Positions 6,641 through 54,485 of a stretch of DNA of 64,000 nucleotides are shown one piece after another. Location: positions 7,841,119-7,905,118 of the forward strand of contig CM020618.1 of the NCBI GenBank assembly GCA_009829735.1, given 5' to 3'. The translations under genes were made by a program, and so were the position numbers. The notes beneath the pieces were generated by a model. It did no database searches, was not told the origin of the DNA, and saw only the letters and a program-made list of their open reading frames with translations. The stretch is from Pyropia yezoensis. Lineage: Eukaryota; Rhodophyta; Bangiophyceae; Bangiales; Bangiaceae. Within the stretch, counting starts at the first letter, position 1. Every line of letters starts with the position of its first letter.

Positions 6641-6645
6641 GCATT

Positions 6646-6654
6646 GTATATATG
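6646..6654 (+). promoter_or_regulatory. Candidate TATA box for the kinase-like gene
   Basis: GTATATATG lies about 130 bases upstream of the chosen ATG at 6779 in otherwise GC-rich DNA. It supports that start over the far upstream in-frame start at 6398. Confidence 0.5.
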
Positions 6655-6778
6655 TGCACCGCGGTGGTTGCGTGAGTGCCGGCCTATCGAGAGTCTCGAC
6701 GTAGCCACAGAGTCCCCCGTTTCCACCGCGGCACACTTCCCCCTCGCACAGTCTTTCACCCCCCGCCGTCGCCGCGCC

Positions 6779-34637: not shown

Positions 34638-35001
34638 TGTAGCAATATGGTTGGCCGTATTGTGACCCTAGTATTAGGGGGGGCTACTTCTAATCCTTGA
34701 CTTTCAATTTGAGAGTCCGTACTGGTCACGGTATCTATATGTTATGTATGACCAGAGCGATTTGCATCTTGGGGTGGAGGGTAGTTAGTAGTGTCTCCGA
34801 GGGTTTATAACGAGGGGGCCGGCGGCGAATCCACCGCCGGCCAAGGTAGAACAACAAACCCCTCCCATTTGGGCTCTCATCTTGGTCCCGTGGCTTGCGC
34901 TGCAAGGACAGCAACCTTGGCCTCCCGGTGACGTTGGTGCCGATCCCCCCTGGCGAGTGTTCCCTGAGAGTGGACGTGCAGCGGATACCTATTGTGCTAC
35001 A
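34638..35001 (+). repeat. E2 5' LTR, 364 bp
   Basis: It begins TGTAGCAATATGG and ends CTATTGTGCTACA, with inverted ends TGTAGCA and TGCTACA. TTTATAA at 34804-34810 is a candidate TATA box for element transcription. Confidence 0.93.
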
Positions 35002-37487: not shown

Positions 37488-38258
37488 TTGAGCCGACGCC
37501 GCATCAACCCCCGGGTACACGTTCCGGCCCCGACGACACGGCGTCAGGGGATTGATGACCAACCACCAAGGTTGGAAGGAGAGGGCGGGAAGCCCCGTCA
37601 CATGGAACCGGACAATGGCCCTGTTCAGGATGCCCGAGCTACACCGGTTATCGGTGTAGGCCACGTACTGTTCACCTTGGAGAACTTCAAGGTATCAGCC
37701 ACACTGGAGGTTGACCCCAAGTCGACCCGGTCGTATTACCCCGTACTGGAGACAGGGGCTGGACCTAACTTGATCCGGAAGAATACCCTCCCGGACAAGT
37801 GGCTCCCGCGAGTCAGAGCTGCTCGGGGACCCACGATCAAGGATGCGAATGGTCGTCTCATTCGTACGACCGCAGCGATGTCGCTGCAGGTCACCATCGG
37901 GGAGCTCACTACGGAAGTTGACTTCCTGTTGTGTGAGACTCTATCTGTGCCCTGCATACTGGGGTGCACCTTCATCAACGTTCACGTGCATGCAATCCGG
38001 CCGAGCCGGAGGACCGTCGAGCTGCAAGAGGCCGACGGGACGAAGAGAGGACAGATAGCTATCGTCAGGGACCTGACATTACAAGGGAGCCGTGTTGGCG
38101 TGGCCGAAGTATACGCCAACGTAGAACCGAAGACACTCCGGCTGGCCAAGCGGACTCGCTTTGAGCCGCTATCGGAGACCGTCCTCCCGGTTAACTGTGA
38201 CCACGCAGGCATCTGCAGAGTCCAGTTAACCTACGAACCTACAAGCGCCATGGGTTGA
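37488..38258 (+). CDS. E2 protease-region ORF with altered active site
   Basis: The ORF has 256 codons and its true start is unknown. The pepsin-like retroviral protease motif reads LETGAGPNLIRK where E1/E3 have LDTGSGASLIRK, so the catalytic Asp is Glu (GAG at 37749-37751). The region after it (VTIGELTTEVDFLLCETLSVP) matches the second half of the protease fold. It ends SAMG and its TGA is followed two bases later by the ATG of the RT ORF (38261), so the next ORF may be reached by reinitiation or frameshift. A Glu in this position is expected to weaken or abolish cleavage. Confidence 0.75.
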   Translation: MSRRRINPRVHVPAPTTRRQGIDDQPPRLEGEGGKPRHMEPDNGPVQDARATPVIGVGHVLFTLENFKVSATLEVDPKSTRSYYPVLETGAGPNLIRKNTLPDKWLPRVRAARGPTIKDANGRLIRTTAAMSLQVTIGELTTEVDFLLCETLSVPCILGCTFINVHVHAIRPSRRTVELQEADGTKRGQIAIVRDLTLQGSRVGVAEVYANVEPKTLRLAKRTRFEPLSETVLPVNCDHAGICRVQLTYEPTSAMG

Positions 38259-38260
38259 CC

Positions 38261-41200
38261 ATGGCCAATGGTATCGTAGACCTCGCAGCGGGGGGGTCAT
38301 CACTGCTGGTGGTGGCGAACTATCGCCGTAAGGCAGTCACCCTCCCGAAGGGAACTATCCTTGGGATTGCCGAGCTCTACGAAGGAGATATCCTTACCCC
38401 TGACAAGGAAGGTCAAGTGAAACCACTTGAGGTGCTCGCGGTCGCCGAGACCTCCGAGCGGCAGCAACCCGATGACGGGAAGCCTGACCCATCGGCGGCT
38501 CCGGCGGACAAACCGCCAAAGGACCAAGAAGCCTTGCAGGCACTGGCCGAGGCTGACCTCGACCACCTTCCTCCTTCGGTAGCTGAAGGGGCACGACGGA
38601 TTATAAGAAGGCATGACGTCATGTCGACCGGCGGGGCGCTGGGCACCATTGGGGCAACCCAACACCGTATAGACCTGGTACCAGGTGCGCGACCAGCGCG
38701 GTCGCAACCGCATCGTGCGGGACCTATGCAACGAGAGATCGTTGATGGAGAAGTGAAGAGGATGAGCGAAGCAAAGGTAATCCGACCTTCGATGTCGGAG
38801 TGGGGCGCCCCAGTCGTTATCGTACCGAAGAAGGATCAGACCCCTCGGTTTTGCATCGATTATCGACGCCTCAACTTGTTTACCAAGACAGACTCATACC
38901 CTTTACCAAGGATGGACGAGTGCATCGACTCGCTGGGGGAGGCCACAGTGTTTACCACTATCGACTGCAATGCCGGGTACTGGCAGATCCCAGTTGCGGA
39001 AGAGGATATCCCCAAGACGGCGTTCGTCTGTCACAGTGGCGTGTACGAGTTCCGAAGGATGCCCTTCGGATTGTCCAACGCCCCCACCACATTCCAACGG
39101 GCCATCGACATTATACTGTCGGGAGTCAAGTGGCGTAACTGCCTGGTGTACTTGGACGACGTCATCGTCTTCTCACGTAACATGGATGACGATGTGCAGC
39201 ATGTCGACGAGGTACTCACCCTCTTGCGGAACGCCAGGGTAACCCTGCGCCTCAAGAAGTGCGCCTTCTTCCAGCAGACAGTCGAGTATCTAGGTCACCA
39301 GATCACACCAGGTAAACTGGAAGTGCTCGAAGCTAATACCCGGGCACTCCGGGATGCGCGATACCCAACCACCCAGACACAGATAAAAAGCTTCCTGGGG
39401 ATGTGCAATGTATACCGACGGTTCGTCAAGGACTTTGCTCGTATAGCCAAACCGTTAACGGTTCTGACGAGCAGTGCCTTGCCAAAGGTACTCCAACCTC
39501 CCTCGCCCAGCGAGGGAGAGGCATTCGAGCTGCTCAAGAAAGCCCTGCTAGCCCCACCCGTGCTTGCGTTGCCGCATAGACGCGGGACCTTCGTCATCGA
39601 CGTGGATGCCTGCGACACCCAAGTGGGATGCACCCTGCTACAGGTAGAGACCATCATCGGTACCGAAAATGCTATCCCGGCCCTATATCCGGTAGGGTAC
39701 TTCATCCGGACACTCAACCCGGCTGAATGTAACTATAGTGCCACCGAGCGCGAGTGCCTCGAAGTCATATGGGCAGTGCAACTGCTCCGGCCATACCTGG
39801 AAGGTTCCAGATTCATCGTAAGGTCCGACCACGAACATTCACGATGGCTTCTCAACCTTGGTGACAAGGATTCCGACAGCCACGGTCGGCTAGCCCGGTG
39901 GAGGCTGAAGATGGCCGAGCACGACTACCGGACCATATATGAGGCCGGCTCCACTCATCATCTGGGGGACGCGCTGTCGCGACTCGATACCCCAAGCGGG
40001 GATACCCGACAGGTGGACGAAGACATCCCGGTGGTACCGGTGTGCATGGTGGGTAATGCTACACAAGGTATGGTTGACCATACCATGGCACACCTTGCGT
40101 GCCCATTGACCCTCGCGGACTTCCGCGAGGCACAGGCCAATGACGATGACTGCAAACGCCATCGTGCTAACCTCCTGGCCGGCACGGCCGGCATCTTCTC
40201 CGAGAACGAGGACGGACTCATATATCGGCGGGCACCCGCCGATGGACGGCATCAGGTCGTGGTTCCCGTGTCCTTACGGCTGGCCGTCATGGAACGAGAA
40301 CACGAGAACCCCACAGCCGGACACCCGGGGGGTTCACGCATGTTCGCAGCAATGCGAAGGTTCTTCTACTGGCCAGCTATGGCCATCGACGTAATCGACC
40401 ACGTGCGGGGATGCCACCCGTGTGCACGGAATCGCATGAGTCTTCATAGGCGATCATCCGCTATGAAACTGTTCCCCCCAGACGGGCCCAACGAGCAAGT
40501 CGCTATCGACATACTCGGACCGCTTCCGGTAACGGAAGAAGGGAACAGGTACATCCTGGTCATGTCGGACCGCTTTACTAAGCTGTCACGGGCAGTAGCA
40601 ATCCCGAACGATACGGCCTACACGATCATGAACGCAGTGGTTGACCACTGGATCAGTGCTTACGGAGTTATGAAGCAACTCCTCTCCGATAACGGAGCAA
40701 ACCTTACGTCAGCATTCTGCACTAAGGTCCTGGGCATTTTCGGCATCGAACCCCGTCGGGCATCCGACTACCACCCGCAATCCAACGGGCAAGTGGAGCG
40801 GTTCAACCGCACCATGGTGAAGATGCTCCAATGCTACGTGGCGGAGCACACGAAGACGTGGGACAGGCTTGTGTCCGTCTTGACCCTGGCATACAATGCC
40901 AGGCCCCACCGAAGTACCAGCATTGGACCGTACCAGATCTTACACAGAGATGATCACTCTGTAATCCTGCACTCCGATACGGAGATACAACGCATCAACC
41001 TCAATCATGTGACACCTGCTCCGAAGCCGGAACAGCCTCAGCCGGTACCGGCTGGGTTGCTACACGAAGCTCTTACAACCCACCGGTCAGGTGACCCGAT
41101 GGGACCGGATGGGATTCCATACCAAGTAAAGCGCTTGGTCGGACACACCGACCCGGACCTACCAGGACCCTGGTACGTCAAGGTTATGTGGGTCGGATAC

Positions 41201-41281
41201 GACTCACCCACCTGGGGACAGGCGGCGAATCTACCCCGCCAACTCCTCATGCCTTACATGAGGCGACGACGCCTACTGTAA
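38261..41281 (+). CDS. pol: E2 pol: reverse transcriptase, RNase H, integrase, chromodomain-like end
   Basis: About 1006 residues are open throughout. RT (about 110-310) has PRFCIDYRRLN, FTTIDCNAGYWQIP, MPFGLSNAPTTFQ and the YLDD box (299-302, counting from the codon at 38255). RNase H (~445-580) has FVIDVDACDTQVG, the ATEREC Glu region and HHLGDALSR. Integrase has the zinc-binding H683/H690/C720/C723 set and D752, D812 and E848 in exact DD35E spacing. The last 60 residues (WYVKVMWVGYDSPTW) look like a weak chromodomain, which in chromoviruses guides integration into chromatin. Frame phase differs from the protease ORF. All catalytic residues I can place are present. Confidence 0.9.
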   Translation: MANGIVDLAAGGSSLLVVANYRRKAVTLPKGTILGIAELYEGDILTPDKEGQVKPLEVLAVAETSERQQPDDGKPDPSAAPADKPPKDQEALQALAEADLDHLPPSVAEGARRIIRRHDVMSTGGALGTIGATQHRIDLVPGARPARSQPHRAGPMQREIVDGEVKRMSEAKVIRPSMSEWGAPVVIVPKKDQTPRFCIDYRRLNLFTKTDSYPLPRMDECIDSLGEATVFTTIDCNAGYWQIPVAEEDIPKTAFVCHSGVYEFRRMPFGLSNAPTTFQRAIDIILSGVKWRNCLVYLDDVIVFSRNMDDDVQHVDEVLTLLRNARVTLRLKKCAFFQQTVEYLGHQITPGKLEVLEANTRALRDARYPTTQTQIKSFLGMCNVYRRFVKDFARIAKPLTVLTSSALPKVLQPPSPSEGEAFELLKKALLAPPVLALPHRRGTFVIDVDACDTQVGCTLLQVETIIGTENAIPALYPVGYFIRTLNPAECNYSATERECLEVIWAVQLLRPYLEGSRFIVRSDHEHSRWLLNLGDKDSDSHGRLARWRLKMAEHDYRTIYEAGSTHHLGDALSRLDTPSGDTRQVDEDIPVVPVCMVGNATQGMVDHTMAHLACPLTLADFREAQANDDDCKRHRANLLAGTAGIFSENEDGLIYRRAPADGRHQVVVPVSLRLAVMEREHENPTAGHPGGSRMFAAMRRFFYWPAMAIDVIDHVRGCHPCARNRMSLHRRSSAMKLFPPDGPNEQVAIDILGPLPVTEEGNRYILVMSDRFTKLSRAVAIPNDTAYTIMNAVVDHWISAYGVMKQLLSDNGANLTSAFCTKVLGIFGIEPRRASDYHPQSNGQVERFNRTMVKMLQCYVAEHTKTWDRLVSVLTLAYNARPHRSTSIGPYQILHRDDHSVILHSDTEIQRINLNHVTPAPKPEQPQPVPAGLLHEALTTHRSGDPMGPDGIPYQVKRLVGHTDPDLPGPWYVKVMWVGYDSPTWGQAANLPRQLLMPYMRRRRLL

Positions 41282-41731: not shown

Positions 41732-44101
41732 TCAGTGGGTAGACCCACTGCCCGAGGGAGGCCACTTACGCGTAAGCGCGTACACCTCCATGCTCCACCG
41801 GTCGGCAATCTCACGACGGTCAATCACCCGAGTTACCTCGGTGCATAGCTGAACGAGGGTGCTGCGGCCGGCCTCCGCATCCGCCAGAGCGGACTGGAGG
41901 CGGTCCAGCACGCCACCGAAGCAACGCGCGGACCCAACCAGCGCAGCACCTGGGGGGATATCCCCCCAGCTAACAGAGAGACCCTCCCGCATTGCGCGGG
42001 CAACAAGGGCGTCAACGCCCTCATACCAGAGACGGGGACCCCCGTCATGCATGACAGGGGCGGGAGGTGACACTGGCGCAGCCAGAGGAGCCACAGGAGC
42101 CGACACGGCTACCACCGGAGCCGGTGGCACCTGATACGAGGCCCGGTAGGAACATACTGAAGGGGCCTCACCGTAAACCCGGCGGGGCTCGGCCCGACGA
42201 CGGGACACCTCACGCCCCCCACCTGCAGAGCCCCACTCTCGGGGACGACGGCCAACCGCGACCGGTATCGGGTTACCGAACCACGGGGCGAGGACCTGAA
42301 GAGGGTCATGGATAACCATGGGAATACCCAGGTCAGCAACAGCCTCGGTGGACGCCCACCCATGGCAATTGGGCTCACCCGGCGGAGTACGGCGGATACG
42401 CAACGAATGACGAGGCAAGGGGGAAGCCCCAGCCGGCGGGTCCCGGTACGAGGGAAGGGCCAACACCCCAGCCCAGCTCACGGCATCGTGAACAGCCAGC
42501 AGAGCCTCGAACTCCCGGGCCAACCCGGTCTTGGCGGCTATCATGTCCACGCCCAACTGCTCGATGTGCCGACGGACACCCGTCGGAAGATGTAACAGGC
42601 GCCCCTGCCGGCGGACGGACAGCAAGAAGGAGGAAGCCTGCCCGAGGATAACCTCAAGGGTGAAGGTACCCTGCAACGGGTGGACCGGCCGGGAGGCCAA
42701 CACACTCCCGAAGTATCGGAGGCAGGAGCCGGTGTCAAATCGGAAAGCAGGGGCGGGTTCCCACCCCTCCTGCCACAGAGGCGGGCGCACAGCAGTGTAC
42801 ACCGGCGCGCGACCGTTACCGGTCTGCAACGCACACGTTATATCGGTGCGGAACGCATCCGCCATGACACCATGGTTGCGTCGCCAGCTCAGCGCTGACT
42901 TCAACCCCGCCATAGGCGGGTACGAAGCCGTCAACGTCCGGTACGGGGATACCCCCGGGAAGCACTCGAACCCGGGATACCGGCCGGTATCACCCACCGT
43001 CTCCCCAAACGCAACCGGCTCCGCCGCCGCCGCAATCCCCCGGGCACTAGCCGGGTAGTCAACCTCCCGCGGCAACGCGGGGGCAATCAAGTCGCATATC
43101 CCGAAGGCGGAGTCGAGGAACACCTCACCCCGCCCAATCCGGGTGCGCCGGAGCTGCGCATGCCGGTCGTCCGGCTGGCTCAGGATCCAATGATGCTCCA
43201 CCCGGACCGCGTTCGGCTGGTTGACCAGCCGCACCAACTCCCGCTCCCAACTTGGGTCCACCTTGACGCGCCGGGAGGTTTCTTCAGGAAGACGCGGCTG
43301 ATGGAAGTCCACCCGCATCCGCCCAGCGGACTCCATCGACTCCTGCACCGTCAGGCCTCGAACCCGAGCCACCTAGTCGGACATCGACATGGCGGGTTGA
43401 CCCGCCGCCAAGGCGACACCGCCACCTAAAGGGGCAACCCGGGCAGGACCAGGGAAAATAGGGGGCGCCGGGGGAAGCCCCACTGGCAGCTGGGCCGGCC
43501 CCGGCCGAGCACGGGGCCGAGGAGGAAGAAGAAGGGAGGGCGCCCGCCCGGAGTATCTCCCGGAGTCCACTGCCATCGGGGAAGATACTTCTTGACCACC
43601 CATCGTCCGCGGCACCGCAGGCAGAGCATCGCCGCCACCCGGGCCCGACGTGGGCACCACGGGAGCGGCAGGGGTAGACCCGTTACCCGCCGCCGCGGAC
43701 ACACCAACCGGGCGGGCACCCGCGACGTCTTGACCCGACGGCTCGGCCGGGGTGCGGCCACGACCATCCGCCACGCCGGCGACGCCGTCTTGAGGTAGAG
43801 CCGCGCCGGCACCGGCGACAGAAGCCATCCGGGCCGCCGGAGGAGTAGCGGTAGAGGCCACCGCTGCACGCGGTTGTCCGCCACCCGACAGAGCCGTCGT
43901 GACGCTGCACACGGACGACAATCCGCCCGGCGCACCTTCCGGGGCCACACGAACGGTCACCCGGTCGTCCTCGTCCTCCGACGAGCTCGCTAAGAAGCAC
44001 TCGGCGGCGGTGGCAGAGGCGGGGGCGTCGTCCACCATCACCTCTTCCTCCTCCTCAAGCAGGAGGTCGTCCTCGCCCCCGGGTACCTGGGGGTCCGACA
44101 T
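41732..44101 (-). pseudogene. E2 antisense accessory ORF, one in-frame TAG
   Basis: The minus-strand frame runs from ATG 44101 to 41732, about 788 codons, with one TAG at 43375-43373 after roughly 242 codons. The N-terminal part starts MSDPQVPGGEDDLLLEEEEE, is strongly acidic, then Ala/Pro/Gly-rich. The longer C-terminal part contains the region homologous to the E1/E3 accessory protein: LRYFGSV against LDHFGSV, and RQGRLLHLP against RRGMLWHLP, followed by a Leu-rich helical stretch. A second Pro-rich linker (VSAPVAPLAAPVSPPAP) leads to a helical C terminus. It lies between pol and the 3' LTR, transcribed against the element. Function is unknown. No enzyme motif was recognised. Confidence 0.65.
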
Positions 44102-44676
44102 GGTGAAACCGGGGTAGTAGGGGCGTCCCGTGCCAGAAAGCCGCAACCGGCTCGACCCGGTACGGGGACCGCTCGTCAGACAAGCCAGGGAAGCGCGGGC
44201 TCCCGCGCTTATGACCACACAGCGCGGCACGAGCGATACGGTAGCGCGAGACGACCTGCGCCAGCCGAGCTACGAGGGCGCTCCACCCAGGCACCTGGAT
44301 CGGGGCCACGCGCCCCCCACACGGGGTAACCAAGGGGGGTCACCCCCAACCGCCCCCCACGCAACGCGGGCAACCCCCGCCACCCACTCAATCGTCTCAC
44401 GAGAGGGGCCCCCCTACCACCAGACGCCTGGTGGCGGATCCGCTTGCGCCATCCCTCGGAAAGGGGGGTCGTGAACAGAATCCCGCATCGGGAATTCAAC
44501 GGTCCGGAAAACGGATCGTGTGTGTACCACACAAAGGGGGGCACCCCCATCAGACAACCTCGAATAGGGGTGTCTGTCGCGACAGGGCGCAAAGCCCCAC
44601 CCGACTGGTAAACGGTCACGCGACCCACTTACATTCGGTAACCCGAATGCAACTCGACCCGAGGACGGGCCGAATC

Positions 44677-44689
44677 TAAGGGGGGGATA
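44677..44689 (+). promoter_or_regulatory. E2 polypurine tract
   Basis: A purine-rich run (AAGGGGGGGATA) ends immediately before the 3' LTR at 44690, the normal position for plus-strand DNA priming. Confidence 0.75.
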
Positions 44690-45053
44690 TGTAGCAATAT
44701 GGTTGGCCGTATTGTGACCCTAGTATTAGGGGGGGCTACTTCTAATCCTTGACTTTCAATTTGAGAGTCCGTACTGGTCACGGTATCTATATGTTATGTA
44801 TGACCAGAGCGATTTGCATCTTGGGGTGGAGGGTAGTTAGTAGTGTCTCCGAGGGTTTATAACGAGGGGGCTGGCGGCGAATCCACCGCCGGCCAAGGTA
44901 GAACAACAAACCCCTCCCATTTGGGCTCTCATCTTGGTCCCGTGGCTTGCGCTCCAAGGACAGCAACCTTGGCCTCCCGGTGACGTTGGTGCCGATCCCC
45001 CCTGGCGAGTGTTCCCTGAGAGTGGACGTGCAGCATATACCTATTGTGCTACA
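44690..45053 (+). repeat. E2 3' LTR, 364 bp
   Basis: It has the same length and ends as the 5' LTR. Differences seen by eye are GGCCGG/GGCTGG, CTGCAAG/CTCCAAG and GCGGATA/GCATATA. Confidence 0.93.
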
Positions 45054-45058
45054 TCACT
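45054..45058. repeat. E2 target-site duplication, right copy (TCACT)
   Basis: It matches 34633-34637. Only 45 bases separate it from the left target duplication of E3. Confidence 0.95.
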
Positions 45059-45103
45059 CTCCCAGTACGTGCCGTCGGGAGGGGGAGGAGGGGGGGGGGG
45101 GGG

Positions 45104-45108
45104 GGGGC
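45104..45108. repeat. E3 target-site duplication, left copy (GGGGC)
   Basis: GGGGC precedes the left LTR and recurs at 54486-54490. The left copy is the end of an 18-base G run (45090-45107), so the insertion hit or extended a poly-G tract. Confidence 0.85.
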
Positions 45109-45577
45109 TGTAGCAAAAACCACAAGCACACACGGCACCCAAGTTGGGGCGGTGTGCTAGGGCTGCCTCCTGTGTCGGGGGAACCGGAAGAAGTGCAAGT
45201 CGCACACACTCTGTTCCTGTTGTGGGGCAAACCCCCCACGGACAAACAAGAGGATGGTGTGTGGTCCAACAGTTTCTTGGTCGGGACGGGGACGCAGGGC
45301 CAAGCCCCGCTGTCCCTCCCCTTATCCCCCCAGGGTCCACTCAGAATCTCGCCACTCAGAATCTCCCACCCCAGCACCTGCCCACCGGGCCACACGAAAA
45401 TTCAAGAGGATAAATGCAGAAAACCCTCAAATCCAAGTTGGATTTACTACTAAGCTAACTATCCCAAACTTAGGGAATATGGACCCAAATGCAGGGGGAG
45501 GAACGGATCAGGCTAGTGGCCTGCCGCCCCTTGCATGGCACGTGTTGCCCCCCTACCTGGGGGTCAATACTGCCACA
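45109..45577 (-). repeat. E3 3' LTR, 469 bp
   Basis: On the plus strand it begins TGTAGCAAAAACCAC and ends GTCAATACTGCCACA. The fourth base is A where the other LTRs have G, which slightly damages the terminal inverted repeat. Confidence 0.93.
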
Positions 45578-45591
45578 CTCCCCTCTCCTCA
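45578..45591 (-). promoter_or_regulatory. E3 polypurine tract
   Basis: On the minus strand GAGGAGAGGGGAG lies directly before the 3' LTR, the expected priming site for plus-strand DNA. Confidence 0.75.
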
Positions 45592-45915
45592 GTTCCGACC
45601 GACCCGGTCGGCCCTGGGAGGGGGTGCGTAAACGCACGTCTCGGCGTTGGGGGCGCGACTTGCTGTCCCCCAGTGTGTACGTAACGCGGATGTGGAGGCG
45701 GTCACGCTGACCGCCCCTCTCCTCAAGCTTGCCCACTCGGCAGCTTGCTTTCTTCAGTTCACACTTCACCTTCACCACCACCTCCCTTTCACTTTCCACG
45801 GGGCCGCCCCACGCTGGGGAGGCCACCCGTATACCCACGATCCGAGTCCCCCTCAACTCGAGGCGGGTCTCGTGCTGCGATAGCCAGAGCGTCTCTCCCC
45901 AACTTGGGGAGAGTC

Positions 45916-47859
45916 ATGGCGACTCCGGGAGTGGAGACGGACTCTCTTGACGAGCGCATGGAGGACACCTCCTACGGTGCAACACCCGCCGGGACTTCCG
46001 GCGGGGGCTCCGCGATCGCTCCGGGGGATGGGACTCCCGCGTCACCCGGCTTTGGGTTGACAGCGGGATCTCCCCCGGAGGCGGGACAAGTTGTCCCACG
46101 TGAGGCCTTGGGGCGGTGGTTTTACCCCGCTTGGCCTCTCTATGAGGAGGGGCTGACTGTTCTTCGCTGTGGCCGACTTGGCGCAGCGATGGGCCGGGTA
46201 TGGGACCGCCTACGGGAGAAGTATCCCCGTAGGGTCGGGTTCCCTGCCGGCTTAAGGACGGACCAGTTTGCCTTCCTGGACGATGAGGAGGTTGAGGACG
46301 TTCAGCGTGCCAAGGCCATGGTGGACCGCGGGGGAACTATTCCGGGTCCCGGCGACTTGCCGACCTTCACGTGGGACGCTGTGGCAACTCGCCCACCGTA
46401 CCTCCACGAGGCCGATCCGCACACTCATCACTTTGATGTGCGGATGGAGAAAGACTTCCGGCGAGGTTCCTACTTGGTGACCTCGGCTCAACTTGAGTTT
46501 CCTCAACAGTCTGCTGCCAGTAAGGAGCAGTACTATCCGAAGAAGCCCCAGTGGTGGCCTCAAGTTGAGGTCCCCTACGGGTTCCCGGCGTTGCTGCCAC
46601 GGTTGCTTGACCACTTCGGCTCCGTCATGTTGACGGCTGGCCCTGATCACCTGGTGTGGGCCATGTTGGCCACCCAGTGGCTCCTCGAGGTCATGTCGAC
46701 CTGGGTGTCCTGTGTTCAGCGGCGGGGGATGCTCTGGCATCTCCCCCTCCGGCTCCTCCAAGGTTTGGAACAGCTCACCCCTCAGCTAGTTGCTGAGGGG
46801 TGCTCATCAGGACAACTCACTCTACTTGAGGAGATGCTCCGGCTCCATAAGTTTATCGAGTGGGAGAGCATTGAGCACAAGTTGCGCCGCCCCACTCGTG
46901 GGCCCAAGGACGATGGCGCACTTCGCCAGTTCGTGTGGGTCGCTCGTGAACTTCACGACGGCCGTGTGGTCCTACGAGAGGGGTTGGGCATCGGGGACTA
47001 CCCGTATGCCCCGGGGGTGGATCGCCACACTGCGCCACCCCCGGACAAGCCCATAGTTATGGCCGTGCCGTCCTATGATGACCACATGACTCAACCCACT
47101 GCGGGAGCCCCAAGTCGGGGTCGCAGTTACACCCGGGTACCGCCACCTCGGCGGGCCCCTCCGCTTCCTCCTGTTCCTTTCCAACCTCACGGGAACATCC
47201 CGATCAGCGTGGCCGTGGAGTCTTCCACCCCGGTGTCCCCCAACTTGGGGGCCACCCTCCTGGCGGTATACCCCAAGTTGGTGTTGCCGCCCACGCCTCT
47301 AACCTCAGAGATGAGGATCACCACGTTGGTGCGCACCATTTCCTGGTTGGCCGCGTCGACCACAACCCTACAGAGCTCCGAGACTCCTCAACTTGAGGAG
47401 CGCGTTCGTACTGCAGTAGCGACCGCGAGTTGCGAGTCGGTGGCGGAGTTTATGACAGCCGAGTTGGCTCGTATTTGGGCTATTATGCCCCAGCCAGCCC
47501 CACTTGGGCGTGGCAAACGTCGCGCGAGCCGGGCATACTCGCCTCCTCGCCGTCGTCGCCGACACTCGCGGCGCTCTCCCTCCGTGTCGGAAGACGAGTT
47601 GTCTTACTCCGTCTCGGAGTCCTCTACCCCGTCGGAGACGGAGTCTGTCCAGCGTCTGCGTCGCAAACTTGCGCGCAAGACCAGGCAGAAGAGTGGCCAC
47701 GGTCGGCGCCACTTGCGCGACCGTGAGGGGCGCGACGGTTCCGACTTGGAGCCGCCGCCCCCTCCAACGAGTGCAGACCGTTATCGGCGTGGGTCTCGCC
47801 GCTCGCCTCCACGGGAGGGCGAGGGCCGTGGAGTGGGAGAGTCTAGCATGCGTGCCTAG
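45916..47859 (+). CDS. E3 antisense accessory protein with RS-like tail
   Basis: The product has 647 residues from ATG 45916, chosen because composition changes there, though the frame opens further upstream. Residues 1-60 are Gly/Pro/Ser-rich. About 60-330 is a folded-looking core with many aromatic residues and family motifs GRWFYPAWPLYEEG, EDVQRAKAM, DFRRGSYLVTSAQLE, WWPQVEVPYGFP, LDHFGSV, RRGMLWHLP and GRVVLREG. About 360-510 is a Pro-rich linker and a helical segment (MRITTLVRTISWLAAST). The last ~120 residues are Arg/Ser/Glu-rich with RRRRRHSRRSP, RKLARKTRQK and a Ser/Glu patch, resembling an RS or nuclear RNA-binding tail. It is transcribed against gag-pol from the 3' LTR side and converges on the pol end with a 111-base gap. 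I do not recognise the fold. Nuclear localisation is inferred from the basic tail. Confidence 0.78.
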   Translation: MATPGVETDSLDERMEDTSYGATPAGTSGGGSAIAPGDGTPASPGFGLTAGSPPEAGQVVPREALGRWFYPAWPLYEEGLTVLRCGRLGAAMGRVWDRLREKYPRRVGFPAGLRTDQFAFLDDEEVEDVQRAKAMVDRGGTIPGPGDLPTFTWDAVATRPPYLHEADPHTHHFDVRMEKDFRRGSYLVTSAQLEFPQQSAASKEQYYPKKPQWWPQVEVPYGFPALLPRLLDHFGSVMLTAGPDHLVWAMLATQWLLEVMSTWVSCVQRRGMLWHLPLRLLQGLEQLTPQLVAEGCSSGQLTLLEEMLRLHKFIEWESIEHKLRRPTRGPKDDGALRQFVWVARELHDGRVVLREGLGIGDYPYAPGVDRHTAPPPDKPIVMAVPSYDDHMTQPTAGAPSRGRSYTRVPPPRRAPPLPPVPFQPHGNIPISVAVESSTPVSPNLGATLLAVYPKLVLPPTPLTSEMRITTLVRTISWLAASTTTLQSSETPQLEERVRTAVATASCESVAEFMTAELARIWAIMPQPAPLGRGKRRASRAYSPPRRRRRHSRRSPSVSEDELSYSVSESSTPSETESVQRLRRKLARKTRQKSGHGRRHLRDREGRDGSDLEPPPPPTSADRYRRGSRRSPPREGEGRGVGESSMRA

Positions 47860-48402: not shown

Positions 48403-51400
48403 TCAGTCACCCTGCTCGGGGACGTGCTTAGCATTGCGCACCTTTTTGTCAAAGGTACGCTTGTAGCGCTTTTGTGCTTTGTCCATCTCAGCCCTGACTT
48501 TAGGGATGAGGTGCTCCAGCCTAGCAGCGAACTCCGCCTTACTCTCAGTAGGAGTAGGCGTACTGCCACTACCCTCCCCAGTTGGGAGCGACCGCCGCAC
48601 GGCAATAGACCGCACACGACGGGGGGTCACAAAAGCGAGGGGTACTTCCCCGGTAGATGAGTGAACCTGCGAATTGTAGGCGGTAGTAAGAATAGAAATG
48701 TATTGGTCCCACGTCTTCACGTGCTCACTCACATAGTGGCGCAGCTGCCTAACAATAGTTTTGTTGAAGCGCTCCACCTGCCCATTAGTTTGTGGGTGGT
48801 AGGGGGTGGCATAGTTTGCCTTAACCCCCAACATATCCAGCACTCCCTGAAACAGTACAGACGCAAATTGCGGTCCATTGTCCGATAGTGTACTATCTGG
48901 GATGCCATACGCGGCAACCCAGTGATCTAGGAAGGCTGACACGACCGACATGGCCGTGATCTCTGCCAGTGGGATCGCTCGCGTAAGTTTCGTGAAGCGG
49001 TCACAGATGACCAGGAGGTACTGGTTGCCTTCCTCGGTCACTGGCAGTGGCCCAAGGATGTCCATCGCCAACGCGGCGAAGGGCTCCTTGGCCGGGAACA
49101 ATAGCATAGCCGTACTAGGCCGCCGTTCCATCAGACGGTTCTGTGCACAACTTGTGCAGGCAGCCACCCAACTGTAGATGTCCACCACCATGGACGGCCA
49201 GTAGTACCTGGTGCTCAGGGTCCGGTACAGTTCACTAGACCCAAGGTGTCCACCCGTGGGAGCGTTGTGCTCCCTCTCAAGGATACTGTCCTTGAGGGAT
49301 GCGGGGACGACAAGTTGTTCAGTCCCCTGGAATACCCCCCTCCTCATGAGGAGGCCATCATCTCCCAGAAAGAAGCGCGTCTCAACCATCGTATCCAATG
49401 TATCCCTCTGCGACTTGCAGAAGGGATCCTCGGCCTGGGCCTTCACCACCTCGTCCAGGGACAGGGGCAAGTACTTCTTGTTCCCTGGCGCCTCGGGGTT
49501 CAACGCCTGACCCGAGCGCGTGACTACCCCCACGATGGGGATGTCCTCATCGACTGGGTTAGTGTCCAGCCCCTCGGTGGGTACCCGAGAGAGGCCATCG
49601 GCAAGGGCATGTTGCCTGCCAGGTCGGTACTCAATGTCAAAGTTGAAGGGTGCCAGTCGCACCCTCCACCGATTGAGACCAGTGTTCGTACAGTCCGTCT
49701 TGAAGATAAACTGCAACGCGCGGTGGTCACAGCGGATGAGGAGCTTCTCACCCTCTAGGTAGTGACGAAGTGACGTCACCGCCCATACCACTGCGAGTCC
49801 TTCCAACTCGGTGTCTCCGTAGTTCTTCTCGGCCGAGTTCAGCCCCTTCCTGAAGTATCCCACCGGCAAGTACTCCTTGTCCGGCTGCTGCTGAAGCAAC
49901 ACACAACCAAGTTGGTCGTAGCTAGCGTCCACATCCAGGATGTAGTGGCCTCCCAACCTGGGAATTGCCAAGATGGGGGGCTTCAGCAGAAGGTCCCGAA
50001 GAGCCTCAAAGGATTCCTGCTCCACCCGACTTGGGGGAGGCAGGTTCTTCGGTAGCGTTGAGCTCACTAGCTCATTCAACGGCTTCGCCACCTTGGCGAA
50101 GCCCTTGGTGAAACGTCGGTACACGTTACACATCCCGAGGAAGCTCCTCATCTGGGTCTGGGTCCGGGGGTACTGAGCCTTACGTATGGCCCTCAAGTTC
50201 TTCTCGTTAACACTGAGACGCCCCGGACGGACAACATGTCCCAAGTACTCCACCTCTTGAGTGAAGAGGTGGCACTTACTCGCCTTCAGGGACACACCGG
50301 CGTCAGCAAGTAGCTTGAACACCTGGCCAAGATGGCCAATGTGTTCCTCCGGACTTCGGGAGAACACAATGATGTCGTCTAGGTACACAAGACAGATCTG
50401 CCACCGTACTCCGGCCAGAATCATGTCCATAGCGCGCTGGAAAGTTGCCGGCGCGTTACACAGACCAAACGGTAGGCGCTTGCACTGGTAGGTACCACAG
50501 TGACAGGTAAAGGTAGTTTTATGCCTGTCCTCCGGGGCAATGGGATTTTGCCAGTACCCCGCGTTACAGTCCAGGGTAGAGAACACGTTCGCCTCCCCCA
50601 GAGAGTCCAGACAGTCATCCATCCTAGGTAGGGGATAACTATCCTTCACCGTGCTCTCGTTGAGCTTACGGTAGTCGATACAAAACCGGGGGGTCCCATC
50701 AACTTTGGGGACGATGACCACCGGACTCGCCCACTCGGCGTTGCTGGCCTCGATCACATCGAGGGCCTCCATGCGAGCAACTTGCTCCTTAACGAGGGCC
50801 CTTGAACGGGGTCCTCCCCTATACGGTTGTTGGCGTATAGGGGGTGCACCGGGCTTCAACTCGATCCGGTGTTGGGTAGCTCTCATGAGTCCCAATTGAC
50901 CATCCCACAACTTGTGATATTGGTCCAAGAGGCGTTCAACTTGAACCCTCAACCTGGGGGGAACACCCTCCATGTTCACATGGGGCCGAGGAGAGGTGGC
51001 CGACTTGGCTTGATGCTTCTCCTTTCCGGACTTCGGGTCGCTACTTGCGCCCGCGTTGAGGGTGACCGCTACTACCGGTCCCTCATGTTGGTCGATATAG
51101 CCGAACTTGGCTCCCGACTTGAAGTACTTGGGCGTCGGACTCAGGTTCATCACCTGGATCCTCCACGGGACTCCGGCTTTGGAGTCCATCGTGCCAAGGG
51201 CAACATGCACTTGGTGCTTGCGAGCAAGACGGGGGTTAGGGTGCACCAACCCGTTCCCCGAAAAATCAGTTACAACGTCAACGTGCGCCACCGAGTTGGG
51301 GGGCAACGTCACTTTGCGGGCTAAACGCAGGGTAGCAGTAAACCCTTCCCTCACAGAGCAAACAGGCTTCGACTGTGAGACTGTCACAGGAGCCACAGAC

Positions 51401-51954
51401 TTTCCCTTACCAAGGATGGGGATAGTCTCCCCATTCATCAACTTGACCCAGTACTCGGGGCCACAGATCAAAGGCACTTGTGTTACGACATAAGGGGTAC
51501 CCAGAAGCAGGGGTACCGATATATTCTCAGCTACACCATAGGTCACGTCGACCTCATGGGTCCCCAACCTAGTTGGTAGGGTCACGGCACCAACGATGGG
51601 AAGTACCCCTCCATTGATGTCAATCATATGGTCAGCCTTGGACCTCCAGCGTTGGAGCTTCACCTCCTTCGGTAATAGCGACTTGCGTATCAAGGAGGCT
51701 CCTGACCCGGTATCAAGCACGATACGGGCACAACAGGCGCGGCCGGGGGCAAGTTGCACCCGTCCAGCCACCTGGAAGTTCTCACCCGTCAGCACCGCGA
51801 TGACCCGACGTGGGTCTACGTTCTTGGGGAGTCCTACCCGAGGTGGGCGGACTCCCTTAGGTCGCCGCAGTATCCGGCACGGTTGGTTCGTCCTCCTGGC
51901 CCACTTGGCCGAGGCTGCCGTTGTGAGCTTCGGACGGCCAGCTCCAACGGTCAT
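48403..51954 (-). CDS. pol: E3 pol: protease, reverse transcriptase, RNase H, integrase
   Basis: The frame encodes 1183 residues. Protease has DTGSG at 81-85. RT (~370-560) has PRFCIDYRKLN, FSTLDCNAGYWQ, LPFGLCNAPATFQ and YLDD at 524-527. RNase H (~672-790) has YILDVDASYDQLG, the TELEGL Glu and HALADGLSR. Integrase has H896/H903/C933/C936 and D965, D1025 and E1061 with exact DD35E spacing, including HPQTNGQVERFN. The ATG at 51954 overlaps the gag stop (ATGA), placing pol in another phase, so expression probably uses stop-restart coupling or frameshifting. The frame ends at a TGA where E1 has Trp. All catalytic residues I can place are present. Confidence 0.93.
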   Translation of the reverse strand: MTVGAGRPKLTTAASAKWARRTNQPCRILRRPKGVRPPRVGLPKNVDPRRVIAVLTGENFQVAGRVQLAPGRACCARIVLDTGSGASLIRKSLLPKEVKLQRWRSKADHMIDINGGVLPIVGAVTLPTRLGTHEVDVTYGVAENISVPLLLGTPYVVTQVPLICGPEYWVKLMNGETIPILGKGKSVAPVTVSQSKPVCSVREGFTATLRLARKVTLPPNSVAHVDVVTDFSGNGLVHPNPRLARKHQVHVALGTMDSKAGVPWRIQVMNLSPTPKYFKSGAKFGYIDQHEGPVVAVTLNAGASSDPKSGKEKHQAKSATSPRPHVNMEGVPPRLRVQVERLLDQYHKLWDGQLGLMRATQHRIELKPGAPPIRQQPYRGGPRSRALVKEQVARMEALDVIEASNAEWASPVVIVPKVDGTPRFCIDYRKLNESTVKDSYPLPRMDDCLDSLGEANVFSTLDCNAGYWQNPIAPEDRHKTTFTCHCGTYQCKRLPFGLCNAPATFQRAMDMILAGVRWQICLVYLDDIIVFSRSPEEHIGHLGQVFKLLADAGVSLKASKCHLFTQEVEYLGHVVRPGRLSVNEKNLRAIRKAQYPRTQTQMRSFLGMCNVYRRFTKGFAKVAKPLNELVSSTLPKNLPPPSRVEQESFEALRDLLLKPPILAIPRLGGHYILDVDASYDQLGCVLLQQQPDKEYLPVGYFRKGLNSAEKNYGDTELEGLAVVWAVTSLRHYLEGEKLLIRCDHRALQFIFKTDCTNTGLNRWRVRLAPFNFDIEYRPGRQHALADGLSRVPTEGLDTNPVDEDIPIVGVVTRSGQALNPEAPGNKKYLPLSLDEVVKAQAEDPFCKSQRDTLDTMVETRFFLGDDGLLMRRGVFQGTEQLVVPASLKDSILEREHNAPTGGHLGSSELYRTLSTRYYWPSMVVDIYSWVAACTSCAQNRLMERRPSTAMLLFPAKEPFAALAMDILGPLPVTEEGNQYLLVICDRFTKLTRAIPLAEITAMSVVSAFLDHWVAAYGIPDSTLSDNGPQFASVLFQGVLDMLGVKANYATPYHPQTNGQVERFNKTIVRQLRHYVSEHVKTWDQYISILTTAYNSQVHSSTGEVPLAFVTPRRVRSIAVRRSLPTGEGSGSTPTPTESKAEFAARLEHLIPKVRAEMDKAQKRYKRTFDKKVRNAKHVPEQGD

Positions 51955-53921
51955 TCGTTTCCCGCCGACTTGGCGTCCGAATCTGAGGGCGGGGAGGAAG
52001 ACGACGAGTCCGAGGACGACGTGTCCGCCTCCTCCGCCAAGGGTGTTGCGACCGCGACAACCGGTCGAGACCCACCCTCGCGGCGTGAACGTACTGCGTT
52101 CGTAGCCGACTTCTTACTCGCATTCCTAACAAGTTGTTGGATGCGTTTACTCAACTTGGGGCAGTCATATACCCAGTGTCCATCGGAGTTGCAGTTCCAA
52201 CACCGATGGTCAGTTCCCGGAGGGGTCTTCCCAACTGGGGAAGACGAAGAGGTACCCTGGGAAGTTCCCACGGCAGCTACCACCCTCTCCTTGCGGATTC
52301 GGCGTGCCTCTCTCAACTCTCTGGCCTGGCGCGCCTCCTCCCGTTCCTTGGCCAACTCGGCCTGACGCTCCTGGCGTTGTTCCTGCCGCAACTTGCGGTA
52401 GGCCTCGCCTCTGCGATAGGCGAACCTGGCCAACTCGGCCAGGGTCGCCCGGGCAGTGATATGCTCCCGGGTTTCCATCCGGACTGACCAATGGAGTCCC
52501 TCCACAAACCGACTCTTCACCACAGCTTGTGGATGAAGAAACCCACAAAGATTGTTGAGCTTACGGACTCGCTCCGCAAAGGACAACTCGTCCTCCGCCT
52601 CTTCCTGATGGGCTTGCGTAAACTCCTCGACTTGAGAAGCCAACGCTGCCTCATCAACCATGGCTCTCAACAACCAGTTGACGAGCTCCAAATAGGACGT
52701 CACCTCCCCAGCGCCTCCACTTGAGGAGCTGGGCATGACGGACATAAGTTCTGTCCGCTGGTCGCCCTTCGTAAACTCCTGTAGCATGTAAAAAGCCATG
52801 CCTTCACTTATGGCATTGTCGTCACAGGCTTTTGTGAAACGACGTAGGAACTCAAAGACACGGAGGGGGGGAGTTCCGTCCCACTCCGCTCTGTGCCCAA
52901 AAGAATGAAGTGCATTCTTCTTGGCACGGCCCATAGCTCGGGCCTGGTCAGGACCATACGCCACCGACTTGTTGTGGAGGGCGTAGGTCTCACAGTCAAA
53001 GATCCTCTGGTAGACCGGGTTGGCTACCTGAATCTTGGGCGGCACCTCACGTTGAGGGAACAGCCGCTGTGGCACTGGGGTAAGTCCACCCTCAGTGCCT
53101 GAAGTCTGGTACGGCGAGCTTGGTGTAGCCGCCGGCGTTTCCGGGGGGAACTCCCCCGTGAAGGGCGTACGCCCCACCGAGTATGGTGTGGCTCCCTCAT
53201 TGGGAGTCACAGGTGTCGCCCCCAGTTCGGGGCGACCAGAGATAGGCGTAAGGGGGGATTCCCCCTGCGCCTGTGGGCTCGAAAGCCCCAATCCGGTCTG
53301 GACATTAAGGCCATCTGGCAAACTCGCCACAATCTGATTCAGAATAGTATTCGTCATCGTGACCACCAGGTCTGGCAAAGTCTGCCGCAACACATTGGTC
53401 GCCTCCCGACGGACAGTTTCCGCGAGGAGGGGATTGACGACTCCAGTTGAGTCTCGGTCCGCCTCCGGGAGTCCACCTGAGGGGTAACCACGTTCCTCAG
53501 GGGTCTCAACCGGGGGCATGGGCGCGAGCCCATCGCCGACCAACGGAGGTCCGCCGTCCTCCGAAAGCCTAGTTGGCGACGGCTCCAAGCCAAATTTGGC
53601 TCCAACCCGAGTGGAACCCGCGGGGACAGTCCTCACCCCTTGGGACGTTCCCGTTGAGTATACCACACGGTGGCCAGACTTCGGCCCACCCACATCAGAA
53701 GTGTCACCGGAGTGAACTCCCGACTGAGTCGGGGTGGCCTGTTGCCCGCCCGCACTTCCAGTCCTGCTGCCTTGAGGGACCTCTAGTCCCTCTGCGACCC
53801 CAGGTAAACCCACCTGTGTCTCACCAGTATTCAAAGGCACTGAAGTACGTGCGTCACCCGTGTACTCCCCGGACGACGGGGGGTCCGAGCTAGCCATGTT
53901 GGCTGACGATCCGTATGACAC
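51951..53921 (-). CDS. gag: E3 gag polyprotein
   Basis: The open frame has 656 residues, the same length as E1 gag and near-identical. It has a Pro/Ser/Thr-rich N-terminal third, a capsid-like helical region (about 300-500), and a long Arg/Glu coiled stretch (RRGEAYRKLRQEQRQERQAE). The zinc knuckle is CWNCNSDGHWVYDC (from 574). The Ser/Asp-rich tail ends SAGNE. The start is about 95 bases inside the 5' LTR, after the primer-binding site. Confidence 0.9.
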   Translation of the reverse strand: MSYGSSANMASSDPPSSGEYTGDARTSVPLNTGETQVGLPGVAEGLEVPQGSRTGSAGGQQATPTQSGVHSGDTSDVGGPKSGHRVVYSTGTSQGVRTVPAGSTRVGAKFGLEPSPTRLSEDGGPPLVGDGLAPMPPVETPEERGYPSGGLPEADRDSTGVVNPLLAETVRREATNVLRQTLPDLVVTMTNTILNQIVASLPDGLNVQTGLGLSSPQAQGESPLTPISGRPELGATPVTPNEGATPYSVGRTPFTGEFPPETPAATPSSPYQTSGTEGGLTPVPQRLFPQREVPPKIQVANPVYQRIFDCETYALHNKSVAYGPDQARAMGRAKKNALHSFGHRAEWDGTPPLRVFEFLRRFTKACDDNAISEGMAFYMLQEFTKGDQRTELMSVMPSSSSGGAGEVTSYLELVNWLLRAMVDEAALASQVEEFTQAHQEEAEDELSFAERVRKLNNLCGFLHPQAVVKSRFVEGLHWSVRMETREHITARATLAELARFAYRRGEAYRKLRQEQRQERQAELAKEREEARQARELREARRIRKERVVAAVGTSQGTSSSSPVGKTPPGTDHRCWNCNSDGHWVYDCPKLSKRIQQLVRNASKKSATNAVRSRREGGSRPVVAVATPLAEEADTSSSDSSSSSPPSDSDAKSAGNE

Positions 53922-54016: not shown

Positions 54017-54485
54017 TGTGGCAAAAACCACAAGCACACACGGCACCCAAGTTGGGGCGGTGTGCTAGGGCTGCCTCCCGTGTCGGGGGAACCGGAAGAA
54101 GTGCAAGTCGCACACACTCTGTCCCTGTTGTGGGGCAAACCCCCCACGGACAAACACGAGGATGGTGTGTGGTCCAACAGTTTCTTGGTCGGGACGGGGA
54201 CGCAGGGCCAAGCCCCGCTGTCCCTCCCCTTACCCCCCCAGGGTCCACTCAGAATCTCGCCACTCAGAATCTCCCACCCCAGCACCTGCCCACCGGGCCA
54301 CACGAAAATTCAAGAGGATAAATGCAGAAAACCCTCAAATCCAAGTTGGATTTACTACTAAGCTAACTATCCCAAACTTAGGGAATATGGACCCAAATGC
54401 AGGGGGAGGAACGGATCAGGCTAGTGGCCTGCCGCCCCTTGCATGGCACGTGTTGCCCCCCTACCTGGGGGTCAATACTGCCACA
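54017..54485 (-). repeat. E3 5' LTR, 469 bp
   Basis: It begins TGTGGCAAAAACCAC and ends GTCAATACTGCCACA on the plus strand. It is followed by the right target duplication GGGGC (54486-54490). Confidence 0.93.

What the first reader, a model, noticed from the sequence alone, without database searches (positions are those of the whole stretch)
41732..47859. Antisense accessory-protein family shared by two distinct Ty3 retrotransposon families
E2 and E3 (and the E1 copy) each carry a long ORF between pol and the 3' LTR, on the strand opposite to gag-pol. Although the elements differ in LTRs, gag and pol, these antisense proteins share ordered motifs: FGSV, RRGMLWHLP against RQGRLLHLP, then a Leu-rich stretch. 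E3 adds an RS-like tail (SRRSPSVSEDE) and E2 an acidic N terminus. Antisense extra ORFs are known in some plant LTR elements, but I do not recognise this family. Its retention across two families suggests a role, for example in RNA transport or nuclear entry. The role is inference.
Basis: partly seen in the sequence, partly recalled or inferred. Interest (0 to 1): 0.88.

Follow-up and report, generated by a model that had tools for sequence, protein, structure and literature searches.

The report
Antisense third gene in seaweed retrotransposons
Jumping genes in the genome of the nori seaweed carry, besides their two usual genes, a third gene written on the opposite DNA strand; relatives of it sit in four families of the elements, its protein is kept by selection where that could be measured, and it resembles no protein of known function that the searches reached.

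Summary
The window lies in the genome of the red alga Pyropia yezoensis (nori). In detail: E2, E3 and the truncated copy E1 carry an antisense ORF (aORF) between pol and the 3' LTR, and the E2 and E3 proteins are homologous (BLASTP E 4e-8; profile E 6.7e-8 with relatives added; above all 500 shuffles). One correction: the window's E2 aORF is cut by one in-frame TAG; other copies are open there. The feature is larger than reported. Two more Ty3 families (F3, F4), reached through their pol alone, carry homologous aORFs in the same place: four of four families examined. Layout holds in 58 of 59 loci read. Selection acts on the protein: dN/dS 0.17 (E1/E3), median 0.25 (E2 type), pN/pS 0.28 (F3); F4 not measured. 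Relatives exist in Pyropia vietnamensis; no convincing match in Pfam, PDB or PHROGs. The layout is that of plant antisense aORFs (Grande, RIRE2, Retand), but the Retand domain TRP28 (PF04195) was not found, so this looks like an unrelated protein in the same kind of place. Best mechanism (inferred): an accessory regulator made from its own antisense transcript. No expression or structure evidence; both AlphaFold models failed.

The parts
45916..47859 (+). E3 antisense accessory ORF (aORF), 647 aa, open
   Evidence: 117 genome matches of its core listed, 116 without a stop
46603..46872 (+). best-conserved core of the E3 aORF (residues 230-319: FGSV ... RRGMLWHLP ... L-rich), shared with E2 type, F4 and F3
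47500..47859 (+). basic RS-like C-terminal tail of the E3 type
41732..44101 (-). E2 antisense aORF (242 + 546 aa), interrupted by one in-frame TAG in this copy
43373..43375 (-). in-frame TAG of the window's E2 copy
   Evidence: stop-free copies with 825-aa frames
42464..42724 (-). core of the E2 aORF (residues 217-303 of the 546-aa piece: FGSV ... RRQGRLLHLP)
24359..25900 (+). E1 copy of the E3-type aORF (513 aa, 5'-truncated)
48403..51954 (-). E3 pol
51951..53921 (-). E3 gag (zinc knuckle)
38255..41281 (+). E2 pol (RT, RNase H, integrase)
37488..38258 (+). E2 protease region (weak match, below the curated cut-off)
34638..35001 (+). E2 5' LTR (TSD TCACT)
44690..45053 (+). E2 3' LTR
54017..54485 (-). 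E3 5' LTR (TSD GGGGC)
45109..45577 (-). E3 3' LTR
45578..45915 (+). E3 spacer between 3' LTR and aORF ATG: PPT and presumed antisense promoter / 5' UTR (inferred)
   Evidence: no TATA-like word found
44102..44689 (-). E2 spacer between 3' LTR and aORF ATG: PPT and presumed antisense promoter / 5' UTR (inferred); 44573-44672 is 99.1% conserved over 8 copies

Best explanation
Shown: a protein-coding accessory gene on the strand opposite to gag-pol, between pol and the 3' LTR, found with pol in four of four Ty3 families examined in this alga and under purifying selection at the protein level in the three types measured. Inferred: it is transcribed from its own promoter in the spacer between the 3' LTR and its ATG (or in the 3' LTR), convergent to the gag-pol transcript. 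Its product, a soluble protein with a conserved core of roughly 100 residues between low-complexity, variable ends, acts in the nucleus in trans on the element's own DNA or RNA, as a regulator of transcription or of silencing, comparable in role to what is proposed for Grande GENE23 and the Retand ORF proteins. Confidence about 0.93 for the shown part; the figure given is for the whole statement including nuclear regulation.
For: Homology of aORFs across E2, E3, F3, F4, F3 being linked to E2 only through E3 and F4. Co-inheritance: by pol, E3 and F4 are the closest pair (61-64% identity, the other pairs 42-50%), and so are their aORFs (36.5%, E 1.6e-44; E2-E3, E2-F4, E3-F3 and F3-F4 22-29%). 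Selection: E1/E3 31 synonymous and 16 nonsynonymous changes, dN/dS 0.168, Fisher p 3e-9, against 0.271 for pol and 0.39 for gag; E2 type 13 copies, 56 pairs, median 0.253; E3 type 28 copies, pN/pS 0.097; F3 12 copies, 66 pairs, pooled pN/pS 0.275. Layout: pol on the opposite strand next to the aORF in 16 of 16 E2-type and 29 of 30 E3-type loci, 12 of 12 F3, 1 of 1 F4. Changes sit in third codon positions (30 of 47), so the protein, not just an antisense RNA, is kept. No long hydrophobic segment in E2, E3 or F3 (19-residue Kyte-Doolittle maxima 1.1-1.4; F4 not computed); E3 tail is NLS-like by a simple pattern. The E2 spacer just inside the 3' LTR is 99% conserved, the aORF-pol spacer only 86-91%.
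Against: No transcript, start site, peptide or localisation was seen. No TATA-like word in either upstream spacer; the E2 3' LTR has such words on both strands, the E3 LTR on neither. Basic RS-like tail and acidic N terminus are not shared by the families, and the NLS-like pattern was found in E3 only of E2, E3 and F3, so nuclear location rests on analogy. Both AlphaFold2 models have mean pLDDT 32-33 and say nothing reliable on the fold. The window's own E2 copy is broken, and 23 of 79 listed E2-type, 16 of 58 F3 and 21 of 126 F4 matches hold stops in the searched part. Listed copies are the best matches, so intactness is overestimated, and frameshifts were not counted. Layout was read from aORF to pol; how many pol copies lack the gene was not measured.
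Confidence: 0.45

Rival explanations
1. Structural or transport role: the aORF product is part of the particle or of the pre-integration complex (for example an assembly partner, RNA transporter or nuclear-entry factor), not a regulator of expression.
For: Selection comparable to that on gag and pol; conserved core; E3 has a basic RS-like tail that could bind RNA.
Against: No similarity to the E3 gag by profile comparison; antisense expression is an odd way to make a particle protein in stoichiometric amounts (inference); the RS-like tail is not shared by the other families.
Confidence: 0.25
2. Anti-silencing factor: the protein counteracts host silencing of the element's own copies. This is a sub-case of nuclear regulation.
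For: Would explain retention across families and high copy number (lower bounds 79, 117, 58 and 126 listed matches).
Against: No domain for methylation, demethylation or chromatin was found by Pfam; no functional data.
Confidence: 0.15
3. Only the antisense RNA matters (dsRNA or transcript interference); the ORF is incidental.
For: Antisense transcripts without coding role are known in micropia (PMC7264820, parts 1 and 2 of 3 read).
Against: dN/dS or pN/pS well below 1 in E3, E2 and F3 types and protein-level homology at 22-36% identity across families.
Confidence: 0.03
4. Host gene captured once and carried passively.
For: No relative in the domain libraries searched, so the origin is unknown.
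Against: 58 of 59 loci whose flanks were read lie beside pol (the exception, L015, matches only residues 1-442); four families share it, with selection in the three types measured. A host copy outside elements could have been missed, since element copies fill the match lists.
Confidence: 0.05
5. Artefact of high G+C content: long chance ORFs, and motif resemblance by chance.
For: Window G+C is 65% and ORFs over 200 aa are common in it (67 listed); the E2 546-aa piece is reached by 1 of 500 shuffles.
Against: Homology, selection, copy number and layout.
Confidence: 0.01

Closest known systems
Antisense additional ORFs between pol and 3' LTR (aORF-3R) of plant Ty3 elements: maize Grande gene23, rice RIRE2, Silene Retand
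   Same: Position, antisense orientation, presence in several families, conservation comparable to gag-pol, no known function (PMC7264820 parts 1-2 of 3; PMC11963269 passages).
   Different: Retand aORFs carry TRP28 (PF04195), reported there as present only in flowering plants; a PF04195 scan of the nori genome gave no candidate and the aORFs match no Pfam family at a meaningful E. Retand is a non-chromovirus lineage; the nori elements E1 and F3 show a weak chromodomain match at the end of pol.
HBZ / APH-2 of HTLV and other retroviral antisense genes
   Same: Antisense to gag-pol, 3' part of the element.
   Different: No Pfam domain here, and nothing known of a transcript from the 3' LTR. Named from PMC11963269 passages.
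Boty antisense ORF (Botrytis, fungus) and PvRetro13 ORF2 (bean, SMC-like)
   Same: Antisense ORF between pol and 3' LTR (PMC7264820).
   Different: Their sequences were not compared here.
Opposite-strand accessory genes of algal DNA transposons (Ectocarpus Sola1-1: ParB-like and DNA methyltransferase domains; [quoted passage not shown]
   Same: Accessory gene on the strand opposite to the mobility gene in algal mobile elements (PMC12477816 passages).
   Different: DNA transposons, not LTR elements; those proteins have recognisable domains, the nori aORFs none.
Env-like ORFs of plant and insect LTR elements
   Different: Env-like ORFs are in sense and have membrane segments (PMC7264820); here antisense, no membrane-like segment in E2, E3, F3.

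Membership tests
Antisense aORF-3R class of LTR elements | ORF between pol and 3' LTR, antisense to gag-pol | tested here: met
   for E2 and E3 with both LTRs; pol-side layout in 16/16, 29/30, 12/12 and 1/1 loci; the LTR side was not checked in those loci
Antisense aORF-3R class of LTR elements | conserved like other proteins of the element | tested here: met
   dN/dS 0.168 against 0.271 (pol) and 0.39 (gag) for E1/E3; 0.253 for E2 type, where the end of pol has 0.157
Antisense aORF-3R class of LTR elements | present in most copies of the family | tested here: inconclusive
   many copies, but counted from the aORF; pol copies lacking it were not sought
Antisense aORF-3R class of LTR elements | antisense transcript from an own promoter (reported for Grande gene23) | not testable with these tools
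   no RNA data
Retand lineage aORF (TRP28, PF04195) | TRP28 domain in the antisense protein | tested here: not met
   genome scan with PF04195: 0 candidates (its 14 control genomes gave none over the cut-off, so there was no positive control); hmmscan of aORF members: none. A very remote relation is not excluded
Retand lineage aORF (TRP28, PF04195) | non-chromovirus pol | tested here: inconclusive
   chromodomain PF00385 E 4e-4 and 5e-4 at the end of E1 and F3 pol, below the curated cut-off; none seen in the E2 or E3 window copies; no RT tree with reference elements
[quoted passage not shown]
   no dedicated tandem-repeat scan was run
Env-like ORF | sense orientation and transmembrane segment | tested here: not met
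   antisense; max 19-residue hydropathy 1.1-1.4 in E2, E3, F3
HBZ-like retroviral antisense protein | bZIP domain (recalled as its feature) | tested here: not met
   no Pfam match
Gag-like protein in reverse (nested element) | similarity to gag, zinc knuckle | tested here: not met
   (E3 gag; zinc-knuckle pattern sought in E2, E3, F3)

The most novel reading that the evidence does not exclude
Red-algal Ty3 elements are ambisense: besides gag and pol they have an obligate third gene, different in origin from the plant TRP28 genes but in the same place and orientation, so antisense accessory genes arose at least twice in retrotransposons of distant hosts, pointing to a common need (for example an early, separately controlled regulator) that the opposite strand serves.
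Probability: 0.4. Interest if true: 0.78.

Novelty: new variant of a known kind. Interest (0 to 1): 0.62.

Why it matters
Antisense accessory genes between pol and the 3' LTR are described mostly from plants (with a fungal case) and have no established function (PMC7264820, PMC11963269). A second, apparently unrelated protein family in the same position, in a red alga, shared by at least four element families and under selection in each type measured, is independent evidence that such genes do something for the element, and supplies hundreds of natural variants for testing what. In this genome LTR elements dominate the 48% repeat content (PMC7423979 passages), so the family is also a large protein class without any named domain in a crop seaweed; four Pyropia vietnamensis relatives are filed as hypothetical proteins.

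Tried and rejected
Gag origin: rejected for the E3 gag. TRP28 membership: not supported. Viral and prokaryote contigs, scanned with the E2-type profile only: 22 and 166 pattern matches, no relative. PDB profile searches: one hit at E 0.038, one at 0.98, none for the third profile, all taken as chance. Pfam at E up to 10: DUF6214 at 0.014 in one of ten E2-type members, Acetyltransf_6 at 0.031 and Fer4_19 at 0.17 in one each of eight E3-type members, taken as chance. PHROGs: none. Rfam on the window: none. Structure: both AlphaFold2 models failed, mean pLDDT 32.1 and 33.1; no fold search was made on them. A second shared domain at the C terminus (helical in both models, block means up to 84 in E2) was tested with profiles against 300 shuffles per target: of 11 comparisons only one exceeded all its shuffles (F3 against the joint profile, 10.8 against 5.1 bits), so it is not claimed. 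F3 against E2 directly is not above shuffles (28.1 against 33.1 bits; hhalign E 0.25). TATA-like words upstream of the aORFs: none. Literature: ten searches in an open-access library listed no report of this gene family in red algae; of the papers listed or cited, only PMC7264820 (parts 1-2 of 3) and passages of PMC11963269, PMC8752119, PMC7423979 and PMC12477816 were read. The three protein searches scored only the best 8,000 or so candidates each, so distant relatives may be missed.


Full report
Setting. The window maps to G000:C1:7841119-7905118 of a 107.5-Mb assembly in 11 contigs whose three large contigs (43.6, 34.3, 29.4 Mb) match the scaffold sizes printed for Pyropia yezoensis (PMC7423979, passages seen). 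Self-comparison and reading of the ends give E2 (LTRs 34638-35001 and 44690-45053, TSD TCACT), E3 (LTRs 45109-45577 and 54017-54485, TSD GGGGC) and E1, an E3-type copy (97.6% identical) cut off at 24319. E2 and E3 share the PBS word TGGTGGAGCAGCAGGGGAC, which occurs 1,786 times in the genome and 0 times read backwards as a control.

Observation. E3 has an open antisense frame 45916-47859 (647 aa from ATG). E2 has the frame 44101-41732 with one TAG at 43375-43373. No Pfam domain is found in either. Pol shows RT, RNase H and integrase in both; pol is 46% identical over 891 aa, and gag gave no match at E 0.1, with the caveat that one of the two E2 gag pieces was in a broken frame.

Homology of the two proteins. 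BLASTP E 4e-8, 26 of 90 identical. Among 6 x 6 frame pairs of the two regions only the two antisense coding frames match at E 1 or better. The protein search with E3 found one near-identical relative; with E2 eight, four of them Pyropia vietnamensis hypothetical proteins at 41-48% identity; the joint profile listed eight, of which six were new: five at 69-79% identity to E3 and one of E2 type. Each search scored only the best 8,000 or so candidates. E3 against seven E2-type proteins gives E 5e-9 to 5e-5, best 47.4 bits; the best of 500 block-shuffled E3 sequences is 30.8. The E2-type profile scores E3 20.0, E1 20.7 and P0001 15.8 bits against 6.4 for the best shuffle. Profile-profile E is 1.2e-5 and 6.7e-8 after adding F3 and F4, aligned over the same core; F4 alone against the E2 type gives E 0.003, F3 alone 0.25, F3 against the E3 type 5e-5.

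Two more families. Flanks of E3 copies showed pol of other families. Following three of these, chosen by pol alone, I found F3 (L047; pol 47% to E2 and E3) with a 769-aa antisense ORF, F3 again (L060/L061) and F4 (L062; pol 61-64% to E3, 42-47% to E2) with a 667-codon open antisense frame. E3-F4 aORFs are 36.5% identical (E 1.6e-44), F3-F4 E 7e-9, E3-F3 E 2e-7, E2-F4 E 6e-4 (31.2 bits; 200 F4 shuffles reach 23.9 against E2); E2-F3 directly has no core match above shuffles. So four of four families looked at carry the gene, and the closest pair by pol is the closest by aORF, as expected for joint inheritance. This is a small sample; families without the gene may exist.

Copies and layout. Listed best matches in the genome, all lower bounds: E2 type 79 (56 without a stop in the 546-aa query), E3 core 117 (116 without a stop), F3 58 (42 without), F4 126 including pieces (105 without). 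A search with P0007 gave 130 matches: one at 97%, two at 64-65%, the rest at 58-59% identity. Ranking by score favours intact copies, and frameshifts are not counted. Pol lies on the opposite strand beside the aORF in 16 of 16 E2-type and 29 of 30 E3-type loci (L015 matches only residues 1-442 and has no pol hit), 12 of 12 F3 loci and the one F4 locus: 58 of 59. Of these, L001 and L009 are the window's own copies and L048 is the F3 copy first found in L047. The LTR side was checked only in the window.

Selection. E1 against E3: aORF 31 synonymous and 16 nonsynonymous changes, dN/dS 0.168, codon positions 10/7/30, no stop codon; one one-base indel lies 16 bases from E1's cut end (E1 24335, E3 46294), so E1's frame is intact from 24359 on. 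Pol 0.271 (two stop codons and a one-base indel in E1), gag 0.39 (Fisher p 3e-9, 4e-9 and 0.005). Shifted and sense-strand readings of the same stretch give ratios of 0.40 to 3.2 and 10 to 23 codons with stops. E2 type: 13 of 16 loci used (L039, L042, L043 left out because their matches were in pieces); 56 of 78 pairs with dS below 0.35 (55 among 11 close copies, plus L040-L041), median 0.253, range 0.129-0.390; residues 157-234 have pN/pS 0.056; the end of pol, 10 copies, 0.157. Three of the 13 hold one stop each, skipped in the count. E3 type: 28 of 30 loci (L015 and L028 left out), 92 synonymous and 26 nonsynonymous codon variants, pN/pS 0.097. F3: 12 copies, 66 pairs, pooled pN/pS 0.275, range 0.11-1.24 with few changes per pair. 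The pairs are not independent. F4 was not measured.

What the protein is like. Ends are low-complexity and differ: acidic N terminus in E2, strongly basic RS-like tail in E3. No membrane-like segment in E2, E3 or F3. AlphaFold2 gave nothing usable. No convincing relative in PDB, Pfam or PHROGs, nor, for the E2-type profile, in viral or prokaryote contigs.

How it most likely works. Shown: coding, homology, selection, place. Inferred: own antisense transcript; nuclear, trans-acting regulator. In eight E2-type copies the 100 bases just inside the 3' LTR are 99% identical while the aORF-pol spacer falls to 86-91%; this fits a promoter or PPT-linked signal there but does not prove it. A particle or pre-integration role is the main rival.

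Known relatives. Plant aORF-3R genes share position and orientation; Grande GENE23 is nuclear and has its own promoter, Retand ORFs carry TRP28 (PMC7264820 parts 1 and 2 of 3; PMC11963269 passages). PF04195 has no candidate in this genome, in a scan without a positive control. The nori family therefore sits in a like place but is not shown to be a member; convergence is the simplest reading, very remote kinship is not excluded. [quoted passage not shown] Ten literature searches of an open-access library listed no report of this family; the genome paper's main text does not contain the word antisense.

Noticed in passing
L047 2476-4785 (-) and L062 2392-4392 (+); C1:23843700-23851700 and C1:14588500-14597500: Third and fourth Ty3 families (F3, F4) with homologous antisense ORFs; 58 and 126 matches listed in the genome.
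   Followed up: yes
G000 C1:1498625-1507238, C1:602949-611532, C1:833536-837611, C1:1581587-1585663: The PBS word recurs in regular arrays (8 sites about 1.23 kb apart, 6 about 1.71 kb apart, 3 and 3 about 2.03 kb apart), which suggests tandem arrays of short LTR-PBS units.
   Followed up: no
window 40235-41281: The window's E2 pol lacks about 285 bases near residues 891-894 that other E2-type copies have, so this copy is defective in pol as well as in the aORF.
   Followed up: partly
window 26015-27703 (-) and L047 pol: Pol of E1 (E3 type) and F3 ends in a weak chromodomain match (PF00385, E 4e-4 and 5e-4, below cut-off); none was found in the E3 copy's pol frame.
   Followed up: partly
window 24319: E1 is cut off inside its antisense gene and has no 3' LTR; the junction was not studied.
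   Followed up: no
C2:13950805-13951725 and C1:3608809-3609738: Further F4-like aORF copies at 66% and 51% identity, possibly more families.
   Followed up: no
window 41735-43372 (-), residues 470-535: The only fairly confident part of the E2 AlphaFold model is a C-terminal helical stretch (block means 59-84, falling to 55 at its end); helices are also drawn in E3 at low confidence, but profile tests did not establish homology.
   Followed up: partly
window 6398-10546 (+) and 12028-13884 (+): Likely host genes: a protein kinase domain and a glycoside hydrolase family 31 domain.
   Followed up: no
window 23438-23573: A 68-base unit tandemly duplicated (96% identical), near the cut end of E1.
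   Followed up: no
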